Assembly: GCA_905250025.1 (NCBI GenBank)
Contig: CAJNOJ010000238.1
Span: forward strand, 71,195 to 135,194
Reading direction: 5' to 3'
DNA: 64,000 nucleotides
Origin: Adineta ricciae
Lineage: Eukaryota > Rotifera > Eurotatoria > Adinetida > Adinetidae
Each line of letters begins with the position of its first letter. Position 1 is the stretch's first letter. The translations under genes were made by a program, and so were the position numbers. Below, piece after piece: positions 8,350 through 31,300 of the stretch. The notes below the pieces were generated by a model, which was given only the letters and a program-made list of their open reading frames with translations, had not been told where the DNA came from and did no database searches.

Positions 8350-9459
8350 TCATTCAGAAAATATCAATTTTCTTTTTCTTTTTCTCGTATTTGATTGTTT
8401 CAGTTCTTGTAAAATTTCATCCGACATACTACAATGTTGTATAGAAAGTTCTTTCAATGTTTCATTTTGCATAACAATATTCAACAAGGCTTCCAACGAT
8501 TGATCAGTGATGAATTTATTGAATGAAATATCCAATTTTTCCAATGTCGAACACATAAAATCTGTATTGATGCCACAGAGAACATCAGCTAACAGTCGAA
8601 CACCATAATCCGTAATACCTGTTTGTGGTAAAGCCAGAAGAGTTAAACAATGGTTGATTTCTAAGTAACGAATTAACTCTACAACAGCTGAATCACCTAC
8701 ATTAGAATTGTTTGCTAGAGAAAGAAATTTCAGGTTGGTTTTTGTGAGAAGTAGCTCTTCAACAAGCATTTTTACTCCAGCAGACGAGATGAAATTATTG
8801 CGAAGGATCAATCCGGTGCAGTGCTTTCGTTGATTGTAGAATATTTGTTGAATAATCAATGATAAATCATTGTCGATTAAGTTCATCGAGGATAAATTAA
8901 GGATTCCAGTCATGTCTAGTTCTTGATCGCCCTTGAGTTTTTCTTCCAAACGCGTCATTTTCTCTTCGACTTCTTCCGACGAGAGTATTCGAGTTCTGAT
9001 AAGATTTTCATTCATCTTTGTTTCGTCGAACTTTGAAAAACGATGTTATTCAATCCATTCAACACGAAACAATCTCTACATTACCGACATGCGTGCCTGA
9101 CGTATTGTAGGTCTCTGAACATTGTGCGGATGTTCGCCGGCGATTTGATCAGATGATATGGATTTAAGATGACATTCATCTACAAAACGAATTGCATTGG
9201 ACATGACTTGAGTGGTTCGCGTGAGAGGAGGTCGATATTTTTTAGGTCTAAAGAAGTTGAATGAACGACATGTAGAAATTCAGAATGAGATTCACTCTTA
9301 CCTGCTTCGTGTGTTTTTCTTATCACGTGAAGAATTGGTTTTGGAATTTCGAGTGCGCGATGTTGTTCGACCGGGACTGATCTCTCGCTCATCTTCCGAC
9401 AAAGCGATTGTTGGTCGTGAAAGATTGTTTGTTAAACTCGTAGAATGTCTGACTTCCAT
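8350..9459 (-). CDS. Leucine-rich repeat protein, ribonuclease-inhibitor type
   Basis: Three exons on the minus strand (9302-9459, 9085-9247, 8350-9030) with two 54-bp introns give 333 residues. The first 110 residues are polar, rich in Ser/Arg/Lys and without a known domain. Then comes a short Glu/Lys helix and an LRR region with units such as CTGLILRNNFISSAGVKML, LKFLSLANNSNVGDSAVVEL and LEKLDISFNKFITDQSLEAL, i.e. about 28-residue L-x-x-L-x-L-x-x-N-x-I units. The tail NTRKRKRKLIF is basic and could serve nuclear import. LRRs of this kind bind proteins; no effector or nucleotide-binding domain is present. Unlike the LRR array at 19.6-28.3 kb, all repeats here share one exon. The partner is unknown. 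Confidence 0.75.
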
Positions 9460-13883: not shown

Positions 13884-15014
13884 ATGACTACATATGATCC
13901 CGGACATATTAGTAAGTTGAAGTTCATTGTGACTGGAATGCATTTGTCCTATGTAGATAATCTTGACAAGAACCAAGTTAAGGCTTTGAAAGATTTATGG
14001 TTGCTTTTGGAGAGGGAATTTCGTGATCCGGAGAAACCGGTTAATTCTACTGTTGAAATGGAAATTTCTCTTGCAAGTGGATATGATAATCCGGATATGA
14101 TCTTACTTCGGTGGCTACGCGCAAAAAAATGGAATGTTCAAAGTGCATTTCAACAATGCCGTGATACGATCAAATGGAGACAAGAATGGGGAGTAAAAGA
14201 ACTTGTTGCTAGAGGTGAAATGGATTTATGTGAAGAAGAAATACGAACAGGAAAGAGTTATTTTACTGGTCCTGATAAAGCTGGTCGACCGATTAGTTAC
14301 GTTTCAGTTAAGGATCATATCAAAGGACAATTTCCACCTGAATCAACAGAAAAGGTAACTGTGTACACTATGGAAACAGGTCGAAAGCTGTTACGACCAC
14401 CGCACGAATCAGTTACCGTTATTTTCGACATGACTGGTTTCGGTCTAAAGAACATGGACTATCCGCATTTGAAATTTCTTATTAACTTGCTAGAGAACTA
14501 TTATCCGGAGTCATTTGCTCTAGGATTGATAATCAACGCACCTTGGATATTCAATGGGTGTTGGTATATCATTAAACCTTGGCTAGATCCGATTGTTGAG
14601 AGTAAGATTCATTTTATTAATAATCTGAATGATTTGACTGAATTTGTCGATCCATCGATGTTACCGAAACAATTGAATGGTACTCAGCCGGATTTCCAAT
14701 ACATTCCACCAAGTGAGGAAGAGTTAGCTAAGTTAGCTGTAATTCGAAATGATCAGAAAGGAAAATTGAAAGCGGAAGAAGAACATCGAAAAGCAGCGGA
14801 GAAATATCTTCAAGTCACAGAAAAATGGGTTCGTGGAGATGATACGGATGAAATTTTAGAAGAACGAAGACTAGCGACACAAGAATTACGTGATGCTTTC
14901 GAACAACTAGTTCCGTATGTGAGTACACAAACTCATTATCATCGAACGGGAGCTATTCAAGAACCAATATTTGATATTGTTTATCAAAGAATAAAAGAAA
15001 ATTCTCCGAATTAA
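13884..15014 (+). CDS. CRAL-TRIO (Sec14-like) lipid-transfer protein, fungal-type
   Basis: One uninterrupted frame of 376 residues from ATG 13884 (the frame is open further upstream, but no earlier ATG exists). The N-terminal helical CRAL-TRIO-N part contains DMILLRWLRAKKWNVQSAF. The lipid-binding lobe carries DKAGRPISYVSVKDH, then VIFDMTGFGLKNMDY, YYPESFALGLIINAPWIFNG, KPWLDPIVESKIHF and the closing DPSMLPKQLNG. The lobe reads most like fungal CRAL/TRIO proteins (F-D-M-T/S-G-F then A-P-W-x-F), a remembered resemblance and not an alignment result. The Lys/Glu-rich tail (about 275-320) is probably a coiled helix. Role in the family: cytosolic exchange of phosphatidylinositol and other lipids between membranes. 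It lies tail-to-tail with the aldo-keto reductase, 330 bp apart. Absence of introns fits recent acquisition. Confidence 0.9.
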   Translation: MTTYDPGHISKLKFIVTGMHLSYVDNLDKNQVKALKDLWLLLEREFRDPEKPVNSTVEMEISLASGYDNPDMILLRWLRAKKWNVQSAFQQCRDTIKWRQEWGVKELVARGEMDLCEEEIRTGKSYFTGPDKAGRPISYVSVKDHIKGQFPPESTEKVTVYTMETGRKLLRPPHESVTVIFDMTGFGLKNMDYPHLKFLINLLENYYPESFALGLIINAPWIFNGCWYIIKPWLDPIVESKIHFINNLNDLTEFVDPSMLPKQLNGTQPDFQYIPPSEEELAKLAVIRNDQKGKLKAEEEHRKAAEKYLQVTEKWVRGDDTDEILEERRLATQELRDAFEQLVPYVSTQTHYHRTGAIQEPIFDIVYQRIKENSPN

Positions 15015-15343
15015 CTTTGTATTTTCTATTCATTGTGATTTATTTAATTGTAATTCTTCTTTTCCTTTCCTGTATTTTTGATAAACCTTTTCATGTGAAA
15101 ATGTATTAGATGTTCTTCTCTTGAACATTGGTTGTTATTACTATGATACCATTCTCATGGTTTAGTACGCATAGGTAAAGTCACTTTCAACTCTGTTTTT
15201 TGTACATTGCAGCTATGAAAATTTCTTAATACTCTCAACCATCTTTGGTTTATTTATTTTTGTCTGAATGAAATCTGATAAACTAAGAGACAAAATTCAT
15301 GATAAAACTGAATGAAGAAATCCGATTGAAGACGTCCGAGGGT
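15015..15343. other. 3' spacer between convergent genes
   Basis: 330 bp shared by the 3' ends of the CRAL-TRIO gene (plus) and the aldo-keto reductase gene (minus). No coding potential is recognised. Confidence 0.4.
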
Positions 15344-18265: not shown

Positions 18266-21200
18266 ATGACGACTGGTTTTACTGCCCTGGTTGAGAATGT
18301 CATCACTTGTCCCGTATGTCTGAGACATTTTGATGAACCACGTATGCTGCCGTGTAAGCATACGTTTTGTTTCGAATGCATTCAACAAATGGCCTCGAAA
18401 AATAACGGTCTGTTGGAATGTCCGAAAAAGGATGGAATGAAAGTCCAAGGTAATGCTATCAATGCATTACTTGTGAATGAAACTGTTCGGGATCTCATTA
18501 AATTTTTTGGTAAGACATACGACAATTTTTATTCTTATTACCTGTTTCCTTTTCTTGTCTCAGATAATCCCGAACCTGCTGCGGTTCAATGTCATAGATG
18601 TGCGACCAATGAAGCTGACTATTGGTGTGATGGTGATTGCAGACACTGTTTTTGCTCTGACTGTTGGAATACCATCCACGAAGTAGGTCAATACCGCACT
18701 CATACGAGACGTTCTGTTGGAGACAGACCTCGTGAGGTACCTCAATGCCAAGGTCATGGTGATCATTCCATACAATTTTGGTGCGAACAATGTGCGAGAG
18801 AGATTTGTGGTGAGTGTCAACAAACACAACATGCGGGCCATACGTCTACTGAAATTGGTACTTATGTGAGGCAATTAAAAGAACAGGTCAGTAGTATAGT
18901 AGGAAATCTATATTCCCAATGCATGTCAGTGGTTTTTAGTGCGAAGTTCGTTTGGAAGGAGTTCAGGCGTCGTTGAACTACCGATCGGATCGAGCGGATA
19001 AACTGATTACCGAAGTGGAAAAGGAAAGTGAATTCAATCAAACTCGGGTCCGTGAAACCATGCAAAATCTTCGCAATCTGATCGATCGACGAGAAGAGAC
19101 TTTGCTGGGTGAAATTCGTCAAGTAGAGACGGCTGATAAAAGCGCAATCGAAGAACATAAACTTTTGCTTCAAGACGAACAACAGAATTTAATTGAACAG
19201 GTGTTAAATTTTGCTGTTGTTTCCAAAGATGAACAACCGCAAAGACTTTTGAATGCTAGAAGACCGTTTGACGATTTTATTAGAAGGGCAGACGCGAGGC
19301 TGTCAGACCTTAAACCACGGTCAAGAATCAAAAATCATGTCACAGGTCTCGAAGATTTGGCTACTCTACAAACTAAAATTGAAAATGTCAAATTCGAACC
19401 ACTAAGACACACAAACCCAAATGTTGAACAGATTTTCGATAATAATCCGAACAGTACAACACTCAACTTGAGTTCATCGAGACTCAAAGATCTAGATATA
19501 GAACTTGTGGCGAATAGATTAGCATGCCACAGGGTATAATCGAAGATCTCGCTCGTGGAAGTAGTGTTTTGATTGTTTTCCCTTGAAATTTAGACACTTA
19601 CAACGTTAAAATTGTATAGCAGTGAAATTAGTGAGATGGGAGCACAGTATTTAGCCGACGCTCTTCGAACGAATCAAGTAAGAATGTTGCTTTATTCATG
19701 ATTTTAATATTAAGTTATCTCGTAACATCTATAATCATGTGTCCTTATTGATGTAGACACTCACTAATCTGGAATTGCATAACAATAAAGTCGGAACTGA
19801 AGGATTGGAACATTTTGCTGATGCACTACGGACGAACAAAGTAAGTTTTGTCAATTTATGATACAAATACTTGAAAATATGTTCGTTTTCAACTATAGAC
19901 GCTAACGATACTGACTTTGTATCATAATGGTATCAAGAATGAAGTAGCACAGTGTATTGCGGATGGACTGAAAACTAATAAAGTGAGTTTTGACATTAGA
20001 ATTCTCGCGTTCATTCCGCAGATTTTGTTTGTTGACCTACCAACCTGAGAACTTCAACTTTTACTGAAGATATAGGAATGAATAATAGGAGATATATGTG
20101 TCTTGTACCAATGGCATTCTCCCAATCTTTTTGTCTTCCGATAGAATACGACTTTTGTAAAATTATAGAGAATGGAAACTCAGATTCGAAATGTTAACGA
20201 CATACCAGTACCAACATGTGCCAATGAAGTTCTTTTACGAAAGATCACTGATAATGGAAACAACACCACTTTAAATTTATCGTCTTCCAATCTAACTGAT
20301 CAAGATATGGAATTTGTAGCTTATACGCTGAAAACAAATACGGTGAGATATTCTTGACTTTAATTTATGAATTTTCAGTATGACAACAGGACCTACTGCA
20401 AAGATTCATGTCAACTATTGTTAAAATATGTTTTCTGAAAATAGAATTATGTTGAGTTAGAGATCAATCTATTTATCCGAACAGATTTTATAACGAAAAG
20501 GCATATCACAAGTTAATTACCATTGATCACAGCTTATCGATTAACTTTCACATTCGATGTTGTTGTTGAGACAAGAAATTCTCAGCTTACGTTATTTGTA
20601 GAATTTGTTTCGATTTAGGTTGTCACTACATTATATTTGAATGACAATCAAATTGGAGTTGTTGGGACAGAATATCTAGCCGATGGTTTACAAATGAACA
20701 GAGTAAGTAGATGTTTTTACAGATTAGTACCTTCGCTATCCCAAATATCTGTTCCTTTCGTCTTAAAACTTTTCTCGCTCGGTTCGAATCATCATAGAAG
20801 TGCAGCTAGACGTATCTAATGTGAAGTTTTCTATGAATTCGAGTTTAAAGTAAATAAAACATCTTCGTTGACACACCTATCAGCATTATCGATTGATTTC
20901 GTTTATTCGTTTTTTGGAGTAATAATACAGTATAATAAAGAGCATAGTGAGCTATTTAAGTATGTCATTATCTTTCTCTCTAGACGCTAAAGGAGTTATA
21001 TCTAAATCAGAATCAAATTGGAGATGTCGGGGCACAACATATTGGTAAAGCATTGGAAACTAATCGAGTGAGTTTTCTTCCGCCAAAATCAGTCTATTTT
21101 ACTTGACAAATGAATGTGAAACTATTCGATAGATATTTCAGTGTAAAGTTCAAGACTTTTCTAGTTACAAGTGTGTTCGTCTATATTTATACTATCTCTC

Positions 21201-24200
21201 GAATTTTTGAGTACTCCACTGAAATACAGATTATTTCTATTGAGCAGCAAATTCTTTACTTCTTCGAAGTACATTAGTTAGATTCAGTTGTTTAATTTAA
21301 GATATGTAAACTTTAATTGCCTGTAGACACTAACTCGCTTGGATATTTACACCAACCAAATCGGACCTATCGGAGCTGGACATCTGGCAGAAGCATTGAA
21401 AGTTAATACAGTGAGTTGATTTCCCAAATAAGAATAGGATCATCGAGAAAATAGATTACTTTATTATATCCACAGCGTGAGTGAGTTTTTAAAATAATTA
21501 TTCGAATTATGACTAACCGTGAAAGAGTTACGTTCTTTAAATTTTATGTCAAGCATAGTGTCAATCGATTACACTAAATATTTTACAGACAATTACTCGA
21601 TGTTATCATCTTCTTCTTTTTTCTGCAGGTATTGAAGGACTTGCGTTTATATAATAATCAGATTGGAGACATCGGAGCAAAACATTTAGCCGACGCGTTA
21701 GAGAGAAATCAAGTGAGTTTATTTGTTTTGTATATCCTTCAAATAAAGATGTCGATTGCATTTTAAAAAGCTTTATGAAACTGTTAGAAATGGAAAATTG
21801 AGTTCGATTACAACATAGAGTAGCTTTGAGAAGGTAAGTGCGAGAATTACTAGATTAAGAGATATACTTATCGAAGAAATAAGACTTGAATAGTGAATAG
21901 AGTGATCCATAGTTCAGACTGTTCATATACTCTCTAATATAATCTCACCTAAATCGATAAATATAGACACTTAATATTTTGGATCTTCGAAATAATCAGA
22001 TTGGTGAAAATGGAGCTCAGCATCTAGCAAATGCTTTAACGGTTAATAGAGTGAGTATTTATTGTCATTAACAGTAACGATGAACACAGATGTGACATCA
22101 ATCATGACATAAACATTTACTCCATTGTTTCGTATTTCTTTTGAGTTATTTTTATGTTTATATTTTGAGTATAGTAATTGTGTTTTGAATTCAGATTTAT
22201 TTAACTAAGTCAGTTCAGATTTCAGTGAGATAGTGATAGAGCTTTCGATATCTTGTTTAATTGATTTATTCAAGCGTGTACCATAGATAACATATGACTT
22301 TTGAATTTCATTCAATATAGAGTTTGACTTACATCGATTTGCGTTGGAATCAAATCGGAGATAATGGAGCAGAAAAATTAGCCGAAATGTTACGAACAAA
22401 TCAAGTAAGTTCGTTTCAGAAATTAGATTAATTAGTGCTGATATCTTGTAAATCATAAAAACAGTTCAAAGATATTCAGAATGAGAAAGTTTACGATCAG
22501 ATTACTAAACTTTAGGTTTATATAAATAAAAACATTTGAAGAGATGATCTCATTTCGTTAATAATAAAATAGAAGAAACAATGACAAAAGCATAGAATAG
22601 ATATCATTTAATATTAACTCGGAAACTTTGATAAATACGATACATTGAAATTTGAAACGATATTTGAGGAAAATCCATAAAGTGAAGTTAATTTCTTCTT
22701 GAGAAAATATTTACTGTACGATCATTACTATTTCTAAACATGTCTGGTGTTTGTATTACAGACACTGCAGCAGCTTTGGTTATCTAATAATCAGATCGGA
22801 GACGGTGGAGCTCAGCACATCGCAAATGCGTTAACAACTAACCAAGTGAGTTGAATTTATCAGTAATTATTTGAATGTGGAGAACTATATTCTATAACAC
22901 GCGTTCTTTCTTTCAATTATTGAATACTTTACAACCACATTTGAGTGTCAACGAGTGAGAGTTGAAGATTGAATTCTCAGTGACTGAATATCGATTTTTC
23001 TCAATTTTATGTTATGAAACAGTAGAAACGCACCAAATTCAAATAGATATTCGTAAATAATCACTTTCATTATTACCTTGAAATCTCTATTTGACTCATT
23101 CAAAAACTCCTCGCGTCATTTTTCTCAAAAAATTTCTCACATTGGTTAAATATATGAGAAACGATTTGAGACACTTTTTCTCAGTTTGAAAACAAATATA
23201 TCGAATGTCTTCATCTTGCCCTTTACATACACAACCGACTTTTACAAAATCTTCTATTTCGCTTTCTTTTTCAGAAATAATATTTATGATTAATATTATT
23301 TTCATAGTAGATCTACTTGTGAATTCATTGGAATGATTTATGTTGTTTCAAATCATTTTCTTGTATTAGATGAGCAATCGAATGTATAAATTTAACTCAG
23401 AAGAATTAAAATATCAGTTGCTGATTTTGATTTCAAATTTTATTTATCATCTCGATGTTGATTATAAATATTAAATTTTTTAACTTTTGATAAACATCAA
23501 ATGATAAATAACAAAGTACATTGTCTCAATGATGAATTTCGGAGGTATTAGGTTATACGTACCATCTTCAAAGTGTTCTGTTTTCACTATGAAGAATAAT
23601 ATTAAAAAGTAAATGTTCGTATTCAAATTGATCGTTTTGTGACTTTATTTGATAAATTCCGACAAGATTCGAATCATTACAAAAAATTCTGATGAAATAA
23701 TTCTTATTCGAGTAGAGAATATTTTTTCGTAGTTAAACAAAGAATTAGTTCACTGTTATTAATAATCGAATAGATTATAAATTCGATTTCAATTCTTATT
23801 CATTTCTTCGTTTTCTATCCGTAGACTCTTAAAGAAGTTTATCTCGGTGCTAATGCAATCACAGATGTTGGAGCACAACACTTCGCAAATATGTTAGAGA
23901 ATAATCGAGTAAGAAGTTTTTCCATTAAAATTAACTCTTTTGATCGATATATGTATAAGCGAACAAGTTTCGTAGTGAGAGATATGAATTTTATTGAAGA
24001 TATTTCTTTTGTTCTTCTACACACCTTCTGTAATCATTTCTATTCTATGATTTAATTTAATCTTGTCCATCGGACTTATTTGCGATTGTTTTTTCACGGA
24101 TATTTTTGATGAGATAAGAATATTTGAAATGAAAAGTTTATATTGTTCACACTTCCTGACACTTATTGACAGTTAATAATGAATCGAATGAAAAACACGA

Positions 24201-27200
24201 CTTTAACACACTCAATCGGTATCTTTTCGTGTAGACTCTCACTATTTTGGTCCTTAACTCGAATAGAATCGGAGATGATGGAGTCCAACATCTTGCCCGA
24301 TCATTAGAACACAACACAGTGAGTTTTATTTTGGATTTATTTCTTGAAAAACTGTTAAAATTTGTAAAAATCCAAACCTTGAGATCTTTTCATGACATCT
24401 AAGTGAATCAATTTTGAGTGTTCGAAGAAAATGTCGCATTCGACATAGTTTTACACTTGAGTAGTATTTTATGAAGACGTATTCGTGTGTCATTGTGTGA
24501 GATATTATCAAAATAGGAAATTTTTATCTAATAAATATTTTCCTTAGTTAAATAGAATTCAATTCTTTACAAAATCTCATTTCATTAATAAAACATCATT
24601 GAATTTACATACAATGATCGACAATTCATATCAAATGTCGAAATGAGAAGTATCTTATTACTGAATACTTCAATAAATTGTCGTCTTTTTTCATAACATT
24701 TTAAATCTTATTGTTAAATAATCAGACTAACTAGTTCATTTATAAATTAAATACTTTTTATCTAAATTTCGAATTAATTTCTTATATCTTTCTGACGAAT
24801 AGATACTTACTCAATTGGGACTTTCTAAAAATGGAATTACTGACACAGGTGCGCAATACTTAGCTAATGTTCTTCGAACTAATCAGGTAATTATCTTTGA
24901 TAGTCAGTTTTTGAATTATAAATATATCTTGAACTGTATCGAATAAGACAATTGAAAGTGAAGAACATTTTTCAATTTAGAAGAAGATCATCTAATAAGT
25001 TTAAATAAAATACAAATATTTCTCAGATTGAGACTTTGTGTATATCAATGTAAAGTCACAACATCACTTCAGAAATAATCGATTAAACAAATGTTTAATT
25101 TTCAAAACACAATTTCAATTTCCTTTTTCTTTCATCGATTGTTTCTTTATACTTTTCAGTACAACATCTGACATAAAATTATTTATATCGATACGTGATG
25201 TATTGAAAAAGTGCTGAGAACGAACAAGATAGTTTTTAATTTGAATTTTGATCTTCATTTCATCATAGTATCGTATTTATATCGATAACGAAAATTTAAT
25301 TAAGCCATTTCCTGTAAAACACATTGTTTATAAGATAATTAAGTAATTTATCAGGAGATTAATTGTAAATTTGTGAAATTGTTTCTTATTGTAACAAAAC
25401 AAGTGATTCTTTACTTGTTCAAATGTTTATATTGTCTTCGTCCTCCAATTTTACACTTTGCTTTATATTTCCTTTTGTTTTTACTTCTCCATCAAGTTCA
25501 TTAAACTTGATATTCATGACTCTTGAAAGTGTTATCAAACCAAATCAAAAGAGTGATCTTATCTTGTATGTACGAAACAGAGCAATTTTCTCGAAAATAG
25601 ATGACATTAATCATTTTCATTCAGTATTTATGCATCCCTCTTCATACTACCGTTTCATTGTAGACGTTAACTCACCTTAATTTGGGAGGAAACCAAATTA
25701 AAGATACTGGAGCACAGCATCTTGCCGAAGTATTGATAAGAAACCAGGTAAACTGTTCTCTCTAATTTGAAGTATTCTTCTGCTTTTACGAAAGAACTAT
25801 CTGTCATAGTCTATCAAACTAATCGACGGATGTTGCTTGAAATTGAGATCATATCGACAGTTTGTACGATATATTGAGAATTAATCCTAAAAACATACGC
25901 TGAGATTTTTCAATAAATTTTGTCGAAGATTGATCAGAGCATCAATTTTGTGCAAAGGAAATACGATATTTCTCCGATTCTCTTTATAAAGGGCTCTACT
26001 TTCCTTGATGCAGATCTACATAATGATAAATATAAATCATTGATTAATTCAATTATCAAGAAGAGAAATTATCTCGTATCACTGGAAGAATGTTTTTCAT
26101 CGATAAACAATGATTATTTGTGATTTATTCTTGTTATAATTAGTCTTATTAGCGAATAATAAATAGAAGATCGTGAAGGATTAGTTGAGAATATTTCATT
26201 AGTGCGTATGCGAGTTTTTGCTTTTCTGTTTTGATATATGGATGAATTTTGTATTTCACAGAAATCTCAATCCTAATCGAAAATATTTAATCTCATAATA
26301 ATAAGAAAAAACTTCTGACAATGTGATCAATTGTGAGACGAGATGTATTTCTTTTTATTCATATCGATAATTCCACACTTTTTCAATCATTCGTCTGTGT
26401 CTTTTTATTTGAAAATAAGAAAATGAGTTAAATTATTTTAGTTAGACAAAGAATTGTAATTGAATTTTTGACTTTTACGAATAGATTCTTACTGGTCTGG
26501 ATTTGAATGGAAATCAAATTACAAACACAGGAGCACAACAATTAGCCAATGCGCTGAATAACAATAGGGTAGGTGACTTTTCCAACTGAAAACATTCGTT
26601 AGTAGTGTAGAATTTGATTTAGCTGTAGTATAATGAAATAGAAGATGAACAGTTGAGTGTAATTCACATTTTTATCATTAATTATTCTCAAGTTTGATCA
26701 AGAAAATGAAATAATTAGACTTTAAGATTGAAGAGAATACACACACTAATAATAACAAGGTTTTCTATTTGTTAGTTCTAAGAGCAAATATTTCAATAAG
26801 ATCATCTTATGCGAAATCGTGATTAAATTCGATATTACTCGTCGCCATAAAAATACGATCATTTCGAAAGAAATTTAATCATGAAAATTGGTAGTAGAAT
26901 GAAAAGAACATATGACACGACATTTATGATTGTTTTGTAGTTACTTCGAGAACCGAAATGACACGAGAAACACAGTTAGGAAAATTTAACAATGACAGTG
27001 AACATCTTTGGTTATATTTTTCAATTGTATGTATAGACATTAACGCATCTATATCTACATGAAAATCAAATCAAGGATGAGGGCGCCCGACACCTCGCTG
27101 CTATGCTGACTCAGAATCAAGTAAGTTATCTATTCGGTCGATGAGTGTCCAGTGTGTTGATGAACGTTACGAATTGTAGAATATATTCTCTTAAGTAACA

Positions 27201-28332
27201 GAATATCGTGCATCGTAAATATAGAGGATTTATTTTGTTTCAATAAAGCATGTATTTATTGTGAAGATTGAGCTTTCGTCGTTTTACTTCACTTCAAAAA
27301 TGTGTTATTTACGATGAGTTCTGATATAATAACGCACTAAAAGTTAATTTTCGAGAAAAACACTCTTACTTTGATTTTTAATCATTTCTGTATTTTTATC
27401 CAGGGACTCAAGGAGTTGTCTCTTTCTTATAATCAAATTGGAAATGACGGAGCACAACAGTTGGGCAACGCATTGGGGCAGAACAGAGTAAGCGACTTTG
27501 TTTAACTAACTTTCCAGATACAACAAAAGAGATCCTTATCCGATCATTTCTTTGTGTCTAAAAATAGTAAAATGTTTTCAAAAAAAAGTACCACATAAGG
27601 CAGAACAGACTGTAAATACTCTATAGTAGAGTTAAATAACTAAACTTATTTTGATGTAAAAAGGGAAGCGCATTAGTGAATATTGTATTTAAATAGTCAA
27701 TAAAATCTTAGAGCACGAAGAGAAAGATTACACCAGTCATCATATTCTTGTTCTATTTTAAATATTCAAAGTTTGAATGAAATAACACATTCCTGTTGGA
27801 TATGATGAGTTAAGACCAACACTCATAGGGTAACTTTTTTTATATAAAAACTGTTAGAGAAACGGTCGATCTTTTTTTGTAAAAAAGAAAGAGATAAAGA
27901 ACATATTTGAGATGATGACAAGTCTAATAAAAAGTCACATAGAATAGTTACACTTGTACGGTGTCTGAAATACCCTTTTGAACTAAAGTTTAACACACTA
28001 TTAGAATTATTTGTCAGCTCATGGACCTACTTAACTTTCGGGATCAATGAGAGATTGTCAATCAATGGACAATACACAGGTTTTACAAATGTTTGCACAG
28101 ATGCTTACTACTTTAAGTCTTCAAAATAATTAGATCACAGATAATGGGACACAATCTCTTGTAGATTCAATACGAAGCCACATAGTGAATGACTAGGTCT
28201 ATTTCATTTCGACGTCTGTCTTTTTGTTTTTAGACAATACAAGTCATATACCTAGTTAATAATAACGGTATCTCCAATGCAACGAGAACCAATATACAAC
28301 AGCAACAACCACGAATCAAATTCTCTATTTGA
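18266..28332 (+). CDS. TRIM-like RING/B-box/coiled-coil protein with exon-per-repeat LRR array
   Basis: Start ATG 18266. Exons 18266-18509, 18564-18886 and 18940-19533 encode a RING (C15, C18, C30, H32, C35, C38, C52; the eighth ligand is missing, Lys at 55), two B-box-type zinc modules (CHRCATNEADYWCDGDC; CQGHGDHSIQFWCEQC) and a long Glu/Arg-rich coiled coil (about 200-340), ending in the first LRR. Then follow 84-bp exons 19594-19677, 19757-19840 and 19899-19982, exon 20169-20342, fifteen more 84-bp exons (see repeat entry) and terminal exon 28234-28332. All junctions from 18886 on are phase 0. Full joining gives about 931 residues (stop in exon 28101) or 953 if that exon is skipped. Family knowledge: RING/B-box proteins are often E3 ubiquitin ligases, and LRRs bind ligands. 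Alternative: two genes, the first ending by read-through after 19982 (TGA near 20048) and an LRR-only gene starting at ATG 20172. Confidence 0.7.
19594..28184 (+). repeat. Array of 18 single-repeat LRR exons (84 bp each, phase 0-0)
   Basis: Exons of exactly 84 bp start at 19594, 19757, 19899, 20619, 20984, 21327, 21629, 21967, 22321, 22762, 23825, 24235, 24803, 25664, 26485, 27037, 27404 and 28101. Nearly all are preceded by TAG or CAG and followed by GTGAG, GTAAG or similar. Each encodes one 28-residue unit approximating T-L-T-x-L-x-L-x-x-N-Q-I-G-D-x-G-A-Q-H-L-A-x-A-L-x-x-N-Q, a ribonuclease-inhibitor/NLRC3-type LRR. Repeats share residue pattern but differ at the variable x positions on the strand face. 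Introns grow from about 60 bp at the start to 979 bp (22846-23824), against about 50 bp elsewhere in the window. Exon-intron limits were fixed by frame and length. I found no further complete copies in the long introns, but degenerate ones could be missed. Confidence 0.88.
28101..28184 (+). pseudogene. LRR exon carrying an in-frame TAG
   Basis: This 84-bp unit has intact splice borders (CAG before, GTGAAT after) and reads MLTTLSLQNN, then TAG at 28131-28133 where the other repeats have the Gln codon of N-Q-I, then ITDNGTQSLVDSIRSHI. One C-to-T change from CAG explains it. If included, it truncates the protein after about 931 residues; if skipped, the frame continues into the terminal exon at 28234. 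It may be a dead repeat or a regulated poison exon. Confidence 0.7.
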
Positions 28333-28354
28333 TTGTAATATTTTGTTTGTATAG

Positions 28355-28360
28355 AATAAA
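28355..28360 (+). other. Poly(A) signal AATAAA of the LRR locus
   Basis: AATAAA 22 bp after the TGA of the exon at 28234-28332. It supports that exon as the real 3' end even though the preceding exon contains a stop. Confidence 0.6.
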
Positions 28361-31300
28361 AAACCGTGTGTAATTTACTGATATGTCCGATAAATATTTG
28401 TTATAAAAAGGTATTCACAGTGAAAAGATTGATCAAAGGTAGGTTAAATATTCGAAAGGATGTTACGAACAATAATCTCTTTGTCTTGTATGTCATTCAA
28501 AGGATTATCATAAAGACAAGAATGAAAAAGAAACTTTTACCAAACGATCATATTTTTTATTCTTCAAGGCAAAATAGAGAATTCTCATAATCTTTAAAAC
28601 TTTTTCCTCCTATACTCAGCTTCACGACAATGTAAAACATATCATCATCTTTCTCTATTAAATTTGTCATCGATTTGCAGATTCGATGTATATCTAGACC
28701 AGATGTCATGACAACATTCTGACTGTTACAAGCAATTTGTTCTACTAGTAAAATGATGATCTTTTCACTGCGTCTTCCACAATAGTATTCTTGTAACGAC
28801 TCATCACACATTTGTTCGACTTGTAAAATCTATTTGAAATATACCTCAGAATACGTTTATATCTCATTGCATTGAGGAAAATCATTGACCACTATCTTAT
28901 TCCTAGCAGAATTTATCAAGAAAACTCAATTATTAACATGAGAACTATGTACCAAATATAAATATTGACTTTCACGAGAACTCGTAGAATCTTTTTGAAT
29001 TATAATCGTTGATGAACGTTTATATATCCGATGAGGTGATGTCATAGTTAATTATTCTATTTGTAAATAATTTTTAAATGTTTCTTGTATATTGTGCATC
29101 GATGAATTTTCAAGTGGAAGTGAAATAATCATCAAATCAATTGCTCCATGATGTCGATGATAACTTCTGCTAATTTTTTTTGTCGAATTTCAGATTTCTT
29201 CATTGTATACACGTTTTTAACACCAAGTTGGTGGTTTCATCAGACATCGACGTGGATGTTAGGTCTACCAGAAAACGCCCTGGATCATTTATGGAATAAA
29301 GGTTAGGATGTAATTGATGGGAATATCCTCGTCGCATTCTTTGATATTAAAGCAACAATGAATTCTCTCTAATTTTAATGTTTCTTTCAATTTGAGTCTA
29401 TTTGCGTATATGGAATATTTTCATAGTAAACAACTTGTTCTATCGAGTTGATCAATGAACTGATCATCAGTACAACATTCTGTTGCTGCGCTTCAGTGAA
29501 ATCCTTTATATATTAATGTTCCTTAAGAGAAAACGAAATGAATAACAATATGTATTGTGCCCAGAAAATTCGCTAAATAGAAGAATTCAATTAGACTTTG
29601 CATAACATATCAAAGTCTTTTTAAATAACTAATTACATCCGGATGCTTTTTCCAATCATCACAATCAAGTCGTTATTCGATAAACGATGATACACAATTG
29701 ATTATGTGTATAACCATATCAACAGATTGAACTAAGAGGAATTGTAAATCTGAATGGAGATGCAATATAAAAGATGGTTTTCCATATCTTGAATAGTTTA
29801 CACAATCATGTGAGAAGCAATTGAAGTGTGGGAAACGATTATAGAATAATTGCGAATGTTCCCATATTATCGTTTTCAATATAATTGTTAATTTAAAGCG
29901 TTCCTGGTCGGAGAATTCAGTCCAGATACAAAAGAAGATATCGTGTTTAGCAAAATAGTGGTTTTCTATTCAGTACGCAATTCAATTAAATCAAAACATA
30001 CTGAAATATGATGCGTATATATTGAATTTTTTAAACTTAGATCATCAAAATCTGTAAAATTGAATATATATGTATCCTGATTGATAATTCATCGAAAAAG
30101 CAATATAAAAAATCGGTGCACTTTCAATTTTACAGGAATATTTCCGATCGGACAGGAATCACCGTTTGAAATAAATACAATGAACCTGTAAGACTATATA
30201 TCGTTTTAATTTTAAAAATTACTAAGACATATGTTCATATGTCCTAAACACAATTTCATTTTGATAGTCATTTCTGTACGAATAACTGCGAAAACTGATG
30301 TTTTTTTTATCTCCCTATGTAAAAAGTTTGATTAGATCTACGAATTTTCTGTCTTTTCCACAAGCAACTGCCTTTCACTTTTACGATGCGTTCTCAATAG
30401 ACATAATACCGAAATTTTCAATCTAGATGAACGATGGTAGACAAATTGACATTGAGCAAAGACGATGTTCTTCCTGCAAACAATTCATGCTCGTTATACA
30501 CTGATTTATTGAAATTCTCTAAACAATATTGATGGTTCACAAACCTGAGATGTATCTATGCAACAACTAGAACAGTCGAAAGTTCTGCACAGAATGAAAA
30601 AAGATTCGTCTTTGATTGAAAGAAAAACAACATGAAAAATGATTTACTTTTCATACTAAACAAACAAAACAATGCATATTTGCAGATTATACCGTTCCCG
30701 ATCGTACTTTCAACATAATCTCGATTGATTCACCATCTTTAAATAGCATCTAATCAATTTCAGTTTCGCATTGAATGATTGTTAAACCTACATTACACAT
30801 CGAAGTAACCATAACAACATAATAGGAGTGATCGATTGCTTTAAAATTCAAGCGAAAAGAGAGAGAAAAAGTGCATGCATTTTTAATTATGCTTGAAATT
30901 ATTTCGATGACATAATATGTTTCTTATGTTCGTTACTCCTATGCTAAATACGTGAAACAATTCCTGTAGATACGGTCGTGTCGATCTTTTTCCTTTTTTG
31001 GTTAATTGAAACAATATTTTCTGTTCTTATAAAATGCCCGGAAAAGAAACGTCTTGTTCTATTCTTTAATTTGAAAATAACCAATAAAAAAGCTTTGAAC
31101 GTTTCTATGCCGTTAATGAAAGTACACAATTCATCGATTATAAATGACTGCGTTTTTTCTCTTCGGAAAAGAAATTTTAAAACGTGATACAAACAGTATT
31201 TACTTCGTTGTTAAAGAAAATTTTCTTTAAATACATCTCGCACCTTCCCAACATATTCTACCATTCAAGAGAACAAATATCTGTTGTCAAGTTGTACCGC

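What the first reader, a model, noticed from the sequence alone, without database searches (positions are those of the whole stretch)
19594..28184. One-repeat-per-exon LRR array: 18 interchangeable 84-bp phase 0-0 exons
Each LRR unit of 28 residues is exactly one exon of 84 bp, phase 0 at both ends, with its own splice sites. Any exon can be skipped, duplicated or recombined without changing frame. Other multi-exon genes in the window have introns near 50 bp, but here introns reach 200-979 bp, which would leave room for splicing control and for unequal crossing-over. If exons are chosen alternatively, one locus could make very many LRR surfaces, like an exon-based receptor repertoire (compare Dscam exon choice). 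The array is seen; combinatorial use is inference.
Basis: partly seen in the sequence, partly recalled or inferred. Interest (0 to 1): 0.78.

Follow-up and report, generated by a model that had tools for sequence, protein, structure and literature searches.

The report
Rotifer TRIM-LRR receptor with modular exons
In a rotifer thought to be asexual, a gene for a ubiquitin-ligase-like protein carries a recognition arm built from one-repeat-per-exon units whose binding face looks to be evolving under pressure for change, much like an immune receptor; the unit order is fixed in the DNA copies seen, and whether cells mix and match the units is suggested but not proven.

Summary
The array is real, with corrections. 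The array ends one 22-exon gene (18266-28332, 953 aa): RING, B-box, coiled coil, then a ribonuclease-inhibitor/NLR-type LRR horseshoe, i.e. a TRIM-LRR protein of the bdelloid rotifer Adineta ricciae. One LRR per exon is known in NOD/NLRC genes and recurs at five other places in this genome. Exon order is the same in three copies (one exon unassessable in one copy); apparent extra exons in one copy look like assembly artefacts. What stands out: replacements pile up at LRR positions 4, 6, 8 and 9, the concave face, at 2 to 4 times intron divergence, while the rest of each repeat is conserved; a related gene pair lacks this. A 7.5-kb stretch with exons 5-17 looks exchanged between diverged copies. 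Predicted Rotaria proteins from one contig share their N-terminus and differ by whole LRR units, so exon choice is plausible but unproven. Best reading: a diversifying TRIM-LRR recognition E3, an animal analogue of brown-algal LRR-ROCO receptors.

The parts
18266..18509 (+). Exon 1: start codon and RING finger (protein residues 15-53)
   Evidence: Splice model; Pfam zf-RING_UBOX E 2.5e-10
18564..18886 (+). Exon 2: B-box region (B-box at residues 139-177; a second Cys/His-rich stretch at 90-129)
   Evidence: zf-B_box E 9e-7; CEBP_ZZ E 0.001, below its cut-off
18940..19533 (+). Exon 3: coiled coil and N-cap of the LRR
   Evidence: long helices in the AlphaFold2 model of P0001
19594..19677 (+). 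LRR exon 1, 84 bp, phase 0-0
19757..19840 (+). LRR exon 2
19899..19982 (+). LRR exon 3
20169..20342 (+). Linker exon, 174 bp, second cap-like unit between LRR 3 and LRR 4
   Evidence: present in P0001 and, in diverged form, in Rotaria proteins
20619..20702 (+). LRR exon 4
20984..21067 (+). LRR exon 5 (absent from database model P0001)
21327..21410 (+). LRR exon 6
21629..21712 (+). LRR exon 7 (absent from P0001)
21967..22050 (+). LRR exon 8
22321..22404 (+). LRR exon 9
22762..22845 (+). LRR exon 10
23825..23908 (+). LRR exon 11
24235..24318 (+). LRR exon 12 (absent from P0001)
24803..24886 (+). LRR exon 13 (absent from P0001)
25664..25747 (+). LRR exon 14 (absent from P0001)
26485..26568 (+). 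LRR exon 15 (not assessable in copy C175: assembly gap)
27037..27120 (+). LRR exon 16
27404..27487 (+). LRR exon 17
28101..28184 (+). Relic LRR exon: in-frame TAG in all three copies, no AG acceptor in copy C203; skipped in the model
28234..28332 (+). Terminal exon, C-cap and stop codon
   Evidence: open in both other copies
20900..28516 (.). Stretch 93-99% identical to copy C175 in 300-base windows (apart from three windows at 26101-27000 around the C175 gap), while at 18301-20700 identity is 77-84%: likely inter-copy exchange tract; left edge about 20.7-21.0 kb, right edge about 28516 where close alignment with both other copies ends

Best explanation
The locus is one gene for a TRIM-type protein (RING, B-box, coiled coil) whose C-terminal domain is a ribonuclease-inhibitor/NLR-type LRR horseshoe, one repeat per 84-bp exon. 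Most likely it is an intracellular recognition E3: the coiled coil dimerises it, the concave LRR face binds a foreign or modified ligand, and the RING ubiquitinates the ligand or signals. Shown: gene structure; the same exon order in three copies; excess amino-acid replacement at concave-face positions of the later LRR exons; a sharp change of identity between copies. Inferred: that this change is an exchange of the array, ligase activity, immune role, and a modest set of exon-skipped isoforms that vary the length and make-up of the horseshoe. Surface diversity would come chiefly from point changes under diversifying selection plus inter-copy exchange, with splicing as a second layer.
For: 22 exons joined by 21 GT-AG introns give one open frame of 953 aa. 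Pfam RING, B-box and LRR_6. Best PDB relatives of the array are ribonuclease inhibitor (E 2e-41) and, further down, NLR LRRs. Non-synonymous divergence at positions 4,6,8,9 of exons 4-17 against intron divergence: window-C175 0.164 vs 0.040 (P 9e-8), C175-C203 0.195 vs 0.090 (P 2e-4), window-C203 0.256 vs 0.086 (P 8e-9); other codons 0.021-0.035, below introns. Amino-acid differences at those positions, window-C175: 18 of 52 codons against 11 of 312 elsewhere; 0 of 20000 permutations reach the observed count in any of the three pairs. Branch-private replacements in exons 5-14, 16 and 17, sites taken as 0.82 of 144: window 10/118 vs introns 33/2617 (P 9e-6); C203 16/118 vs 179/2617 (P 0.008); C175 6/118 vs 59/2617 (P 0.06). 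Private silent changes at exposed codons: 0, 0 and 4 for window, C175 and C203. AlphaFold2 strands start at unit position 4 in 12 of 12 LRR units of P0001 (element list with unit starts). Identity change at about 20.7-21.0 kb. Rotaria models differing by whole LRR units.
Against: No expression, ligand or activity data. Three copies only, so the selection signal rests on few changes, and one branch (C175) is not significant alone. Positions 4,6,8,9 were fixed after I had seen the differences, though they are the textbook concave positions (recalled). Pairwise silent divergence at exposed codons is not low in the two comparisons with C203 (0.180 and 0.159, from 5 changes each). LRR exons 1-3 show no excess. 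The coiled-coil exon also evolves fairly fast (N 0.074 vs S 0.113 for C175-C203; 0.155 vs 0.281 for window-C175). LRR domains of this type also serve non-immune tasks (dynein regulatory complex and RanGAP appear). C-terminal LRR is not a standard TRIM C-terminus (recalled).
Confidence: 0.6

Rival explanations
1. Exon-choice repertoire: the locus makes many LRR surfaces by combining exons at splicing, as Dscam does.
For: Frame-neutral exons. Five predicted R. socialis proteins from one contig with an identical N-terminus and different LRR unit sets; in two R. socialis contigs (269401, 9803) the unit before SLQNLQLQ is either of the same two alternatives. P0001 lacks 5 of 17 exons of this locus.
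Against: Gene models only. Some Rotaria units are so alike that short reads could be mis-mapped; predictors also miss short exons (inference). No docking or selector repeats stood out. member_sequences counts pool records of unstated origin, so they are no isoform count (control gene of the window: 3; P0001: 7).
Confidence: 0.2
2. Ordinary modular gene: the 84-bp exon is an inherited feature of animal NLR/RI-type LRR genes with no special use; concave-face variation is relaxed constraint.
For: Same exon design in NOD/NLRC genes (PMC6642158, section read) and at five of the seven other places scanned here, the two without it being coiled-coil matches on C8 and C77. Same exon order in three copies.
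Against: Relaxed constraint would give replacement rates up to the intron rate; observed rates exceed it 2- to 4-fold in pairwise comparisons and about 7-fold on the window branch. The C73 TRIM-LRR-like pair, with the same exon design, shows 0.048 at exposed positions (4 of 36 codons changed, 14 of 216 elsewhere) against 0.046 in introns, that intron figure including two exons the first scan had missed in one copy; this control is small.
Confidence: 0.2
3. Targeted mutation or micro-conversion: the exposed codons are hit by a template- or mutator-driven process rather than by selection.
For: Several exposed codons differ at 2 or 3 bases (7 of 52 in C175-C203).
Against: Private silent changes at exposed codons are 0 in the window and C175 branches, 4 in C203; none of 29 private codon 4-9 segments has a second exact copy in the DNA examined, which is the window, the two copies and seven LRR loci only.
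Confidence: 0.05

Closest known systems
Brown-algal LRR-ROCO receptors (Ectocarpus, Saccharina; PMC11378527; abstract and two sections read)
   Same: One LRR per exon, in-phase; four positively selected sites (14, 16, 18, 19: spacing n, n+2, n+4, n+5, as here) on the concave face; as many as nine splice variants with different LRR sets; proposed immune repertoire.
   Different: 72-bp phase-2 exons, LRR class LxxLxxLxxLxLxxNxL, GTPase (ROC-COR) partner, strong exon shuffling; here 84-bp phase-0 RI-type LRRs, TRIM partner, same exon order in three copies.
Vertebrate NOD/NLRC-type NLR genes (PMC6642158; abstract and one section read)
   Same: One 28-aa RI-type LRR per exon, frame-preserving; LRR exon skipping documented in the wider NLR family (NLRP3).
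   Different: No NACHT domain here; N-terminus is RING/B-box/coiled coil.
Teleost TRIM subset diversified by duplication and positive selection (PMC2657112; listing and abstract start only; the name finTRIM and its B30.2 domain are recalled)
   Same: RING/B-box/coiled coil joined to a variable recognition domain, with positive selection.
   Different: The recognition domain here is an LRR horseshoe.
Dscam exon choice (recalled; mentioned in PMC11378527)
   Same: Potential for many surfaces by choosing in-frame exons.
   Different: No clusters of mutually exclusive exons shown; no docking or selector sequences stood out.

Membership tests
TRIM/RBCC | RING finger | tested here: met
   zf-RING_UBOX 40.6 bits over cut-off 25.2
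TRIM/RBCC | One or two B-boxes | tested here: met
   zf-B_box 29.4 bits over 24.1 at 139-177; second Cys/His stretch at 90-129 only a sub-threshold match to another zinc domain
TRIM/RBCC | Coiled coil after the B-box | tested here: met
   Long helices 138-245 and 248-271 of P0001 in the AlphaFold2 model; moderate confidence, mean pLDDT 75.7, pTM 0.50
TRIM/RBCC | Ubiquitin ligase activity | not testable with these tools
   No assay
NLR | NACHT/NB domain | tested here: not met
   None among the 14 Pfam families found at E 0.01
NLR | RI-type 28-aa LRRs, one per 84-bp frame-preserving exon | tested here: met
Exon-modular diversifying LRR receptors (LRR-ROCO type) | Diversifying selection on concave-face positions | tested here: met
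   on three copies; not seen in the C73 control pair
Exon-modular diversifying LRR receptors (LRR-ROCO type) | Exon shuffling or copy-number change | tested here: inconclusive
   Same exon order in three A. ricciae copies; between genera the number of units differs and the middle units have no clear partner
Exon-modular diversifying LRR receptors (LRR-ROCO type) | Splice variants with different LRR sets | tested here: inconclusive
   Gene models only, in species annotated with RNA-seq
Exon-modular diversifying LRR receptors (LRR-ROCO type) | ROC-COR GTPase partner | tested here: not met
   Not among the 14 Pfam families
Dscam-type exon choice | Mutually exclusive exon clusters with pairing elements | tested here: inconclusive
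   None stood out among the repeats; H/P alternation in two Rotaria contigs

The most novel reading that the evidence does not exclude
Bdelloid rotifers, long thought asexual, run a TRIM-LRR repertoire: single loci yield many LRR horseshoes by in-frame exon choice, each exon's concave face is under diversifying selection, and arrays are exchanged between gene copies without sex. It would be an animal counterpart of the brown-algal LRR-ROCO system, coupled to ubiquitin ligase output.
Probability: 0.22. Interest if true: 0.82.

Novelty: new variant of a known kind. Interest (0 to 1): 0.56.

Why it matters
How animals that apparently lack sex keep pace with parasites is a long-standing question (recalled). 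A recognition-type gene with a sign of diversifying selection on the binding face, and with its array apparently copied between diverged gene copies, gives a concrete locus at which to test it. It also pairs the exon-per-LRR design of NLRs with a TRIM module. In the capped protein search (39 hits among 7990 scored candidates) the RING/B-box plus LRR combination carried bdelloid names, or none in the case of one metagenome protein (P0016). The rows listed by the paper searches did not show a TRIM-LRR gene of rotifers by title or abstract start; that is no proof that none is in print.

Tried and rejected
Rejected: extra exons in C175. The scan gave 18 exons there, with two exact repeats of 222-bp period; each repeat meets at a single N (r175 positions 15072, 16355), so I treat them as assembly joins. 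Exon 15 is missing from C175, but a 12-N gap and 724 bp that resemble dispersed repeats lie there; I count it as not assessable, not as lost.

Rejected: member_sequences as isoform counts. P0001 shows 7, but an ordinary gene of the window shows 3, and what the members are is not stated.

Rejected: C238 as the collinear homoeologue of C175/C203. None of 127 window ORFs (70 codons or more, outside the gene) matches the fetched 28-29 kb around the other copies, and two flanking genes have no relative on C175 or C203. I call it a diverged, non-collinear copy.

Led nowhere: a search for donor segments, for intron pairing elements, and three paper searches for bdelloid LRR or TRIM immunity. Of the seven distinct places scanned, two (C8, C77; fetched as coiled-coil matches) showed no 84-bp LRR exon within about 1.5 kb of the match.

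Limits: the C73 control first ran with 7 exons and then with the 9 shared exons; both are reported. The script failed to rebuild exons 1-2 in the other copies; their open RING, B-box and coiled-coil frames were only read by eye. Protein searches were capped to the best candidates.

Full report
What is there. The window lies in a 130-Mb genome. Its contig C238 is 157,941 bases long, and database protein P0001, named Adineta ricciae, comes from a contig of exactly that length and matches the gene, so the organism is the bdelloid rotifer A. ricciae. Exons 1-3 (18266-19533) encode a RING finger, a B-box and a coiled coil. Then come LRR exons 1-3, a 174-bp linker exon, LRR exons 4-17, and a 99-bp terminal exon. 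The terminal exon is open in both other copies, and a Rotaria relative, P0005, ends in a like way.

It has an in-frame TAG at the same place in all three copies, and in copy C203 the AG acceptor is gone. P0001 runs from LRR exon 17 straight to the terminal exon.

Context. The best solved relative of the array is ribonuclease inhibitor, and many NLR proteins follow (60 of 112 rows shown). No NACHT domain is present. LRR_6 matches are abundant: 150 of 1804 candidates were scored, and the 150 rows listed are over the cut-off, several of them 141 bp apart (84 plus an intron of about 57). Of seven other places scanned, five (C559, C349, C205 and two on C73) have 84-bp phase-0 LRR exons; two that had been fetched as coiled-coil matches (C8, C77) showed none. 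The genes on C559 and C73 also resemble the coiled-coil exon. One LRR of 28 residues per exon is also usual in human NOD and NLRC genes (PMC6642158, section read). The exon design alone is therefore not new.

Other copies. C175 and C203 carry the same gene and are allele-like (flanks 93-95% identical). The window copy is 77-84% identical to C175 at 18.3-20.7 kb and less upstream, but from about 21.0 kb to 28.5 kb it is 93-99% identical to C175, apart from the windows around an assembly gap. The simplest reading is that an exchange replaced LRR exons 5-17 and the terminal exon of the window copy with those of a C175-like copy. The neighbouring genes tested are not shared.

Exon chain. Every exon's best match in another copy is the exon of the same rank: 16 of 16, 17 of 17 and 16 of 16. 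Within the window array the closest two exons are 69% identical. The chain is thus stable; two apparent extra exons in C175 meet at N joins and were left out, and exon 15 of C175 cannot be assessed.

Selection. In exons 4-17 the amino-acid differences gather at repeat positions 4, 6, 8 and 9. I noticed this and then tested it; these are the concave positions of the LxxLxLxxN strand (recalled), and the predicted strands start at unit position 4 in 12 of 12 units (strands, unit starts). Non-synonymous divergence there is 0.164, 0.195 and 0.256 for window-C175, C175-C203 and window-C203, against intron divergence of 0.040, 0.090 and 0.086, and 0.021-0.035 at all other codons. The three comparisons share branches, and exon 4 lies outside the exchanged part, so I also counted private changes in exons 5-14, 16 and 17 only: window 10 of about 118 sites against 33 of 2617 intron sites (P 9e-6), C203 16 of 118 against 179 of 2617 (P 0.008), C175 6 of 118 against 59 of 2617 (P 0.06, not significant alone) (the site number is an approximation). 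Private silent changes in those codons number 0 (window), 0 (C175) and 4 (C203); pairwise silent divergence there is 0.000 for window-C175 but 0.180 and 0.159 in the two comparisons with C203, from 5 changes each. LRR exons 1-3 show no excess, and the coiled-coil exon has more silent than replacement divergence. A pair of relatives on C73, 95% identical, shows none either: 0.048 at exposed positions against 0.046 in introns, with 4 of 36 exposed and 14 of 216 other codons changed. This favours diversifying selection over relaxed constraint, on a small sample.

Splicing. Five predicted R. socialis proteins listed with one contig length share their first 500 residues exactly and differ by whole LRR units; pairs from three more contigs do likewise. 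P0001 lacks LRR exons 5, 7, 12, 13 and 14 of this locus and has 18 residues from the intron before exon 16. The published annotations of these species were made with BRAKER on RNA-seq alignments (PMC7943196, passages); that the database proteins stem from them is inferred, and that BRAKER reports alternative transcripts when read evidence conflicts is recalled. Mis-mapping between near-identical Rotaria exons is a real danger; in A. ricciae the exons are more different, but a predictor can still miss short exons. I therefore rate exon choice as plausible and unproven. No pairing elements of the Dscam kind stood out in the repeat list.

Comparison. The nearest known case in design is the brown-algal LRR-ROCO family: one LRR per exon, splice variants, and four selected concave-face sites with the same spacing as here (PMC11378527, abstract and two sections). 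This gene works like that system and like NLRs, but is a member of neither: no NACHT and no ROC-COR domain was among the 14 Pfam families found. By domain content it is a TRIM protein with an unusual C-terminus.

Verdict. A real and well-formed gene, a new variant of a known kind. The exon array is ordinary in its family; the sign of diversifying selection, the apparently exchanged array and the TRIM partner are the interesting parts.

Noticed in passing
window 20.7-28.5 kb: Likely inter-copy exchange tract: 93-99% identical to C175 while 18.3-20.7 kb is 77-84% identical, in an animal thought to be asexual.
   Followed up: yes
C175:9423-10147 (L005): 724 bp next to an N gap, at the place of LRR exon 15, resembles dispersed repeats on five other contigs: possible transposon insertion or misassembly.
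   Followed up: partly
window 8350-9045, minus strand: Another open frame of 231 codons with LRR-like repeats, several in one frame and so without the one-repeat-per-exon design (read by eye).
   Followed up: no
proteins P0023-P0026, P0050: The same LRR type is joined in bdelloid predictions to F-box, U-box/kinase and ABC-transporter domains (Pfam numbers read from memory, F-box also by name), as phase 0-0 exons would allow.
   Followed up: no
proteins P0064, P0103, P0130: LRR relatives are annotated in Rickettsiaceae and a Tisiphia endosymbiont, one of them named NLRC3-like: possible animal-to-bacterium transfer or mimicry.
   Followed up: no
window 13890-15011: A. ricciae protein P0153, 94% identical to this CRAL-TRIO gene, lies on a 33,845-base contig, but no other match above 55% was found in G000: the allele seems absent from the genome held.
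   Followed up: partly
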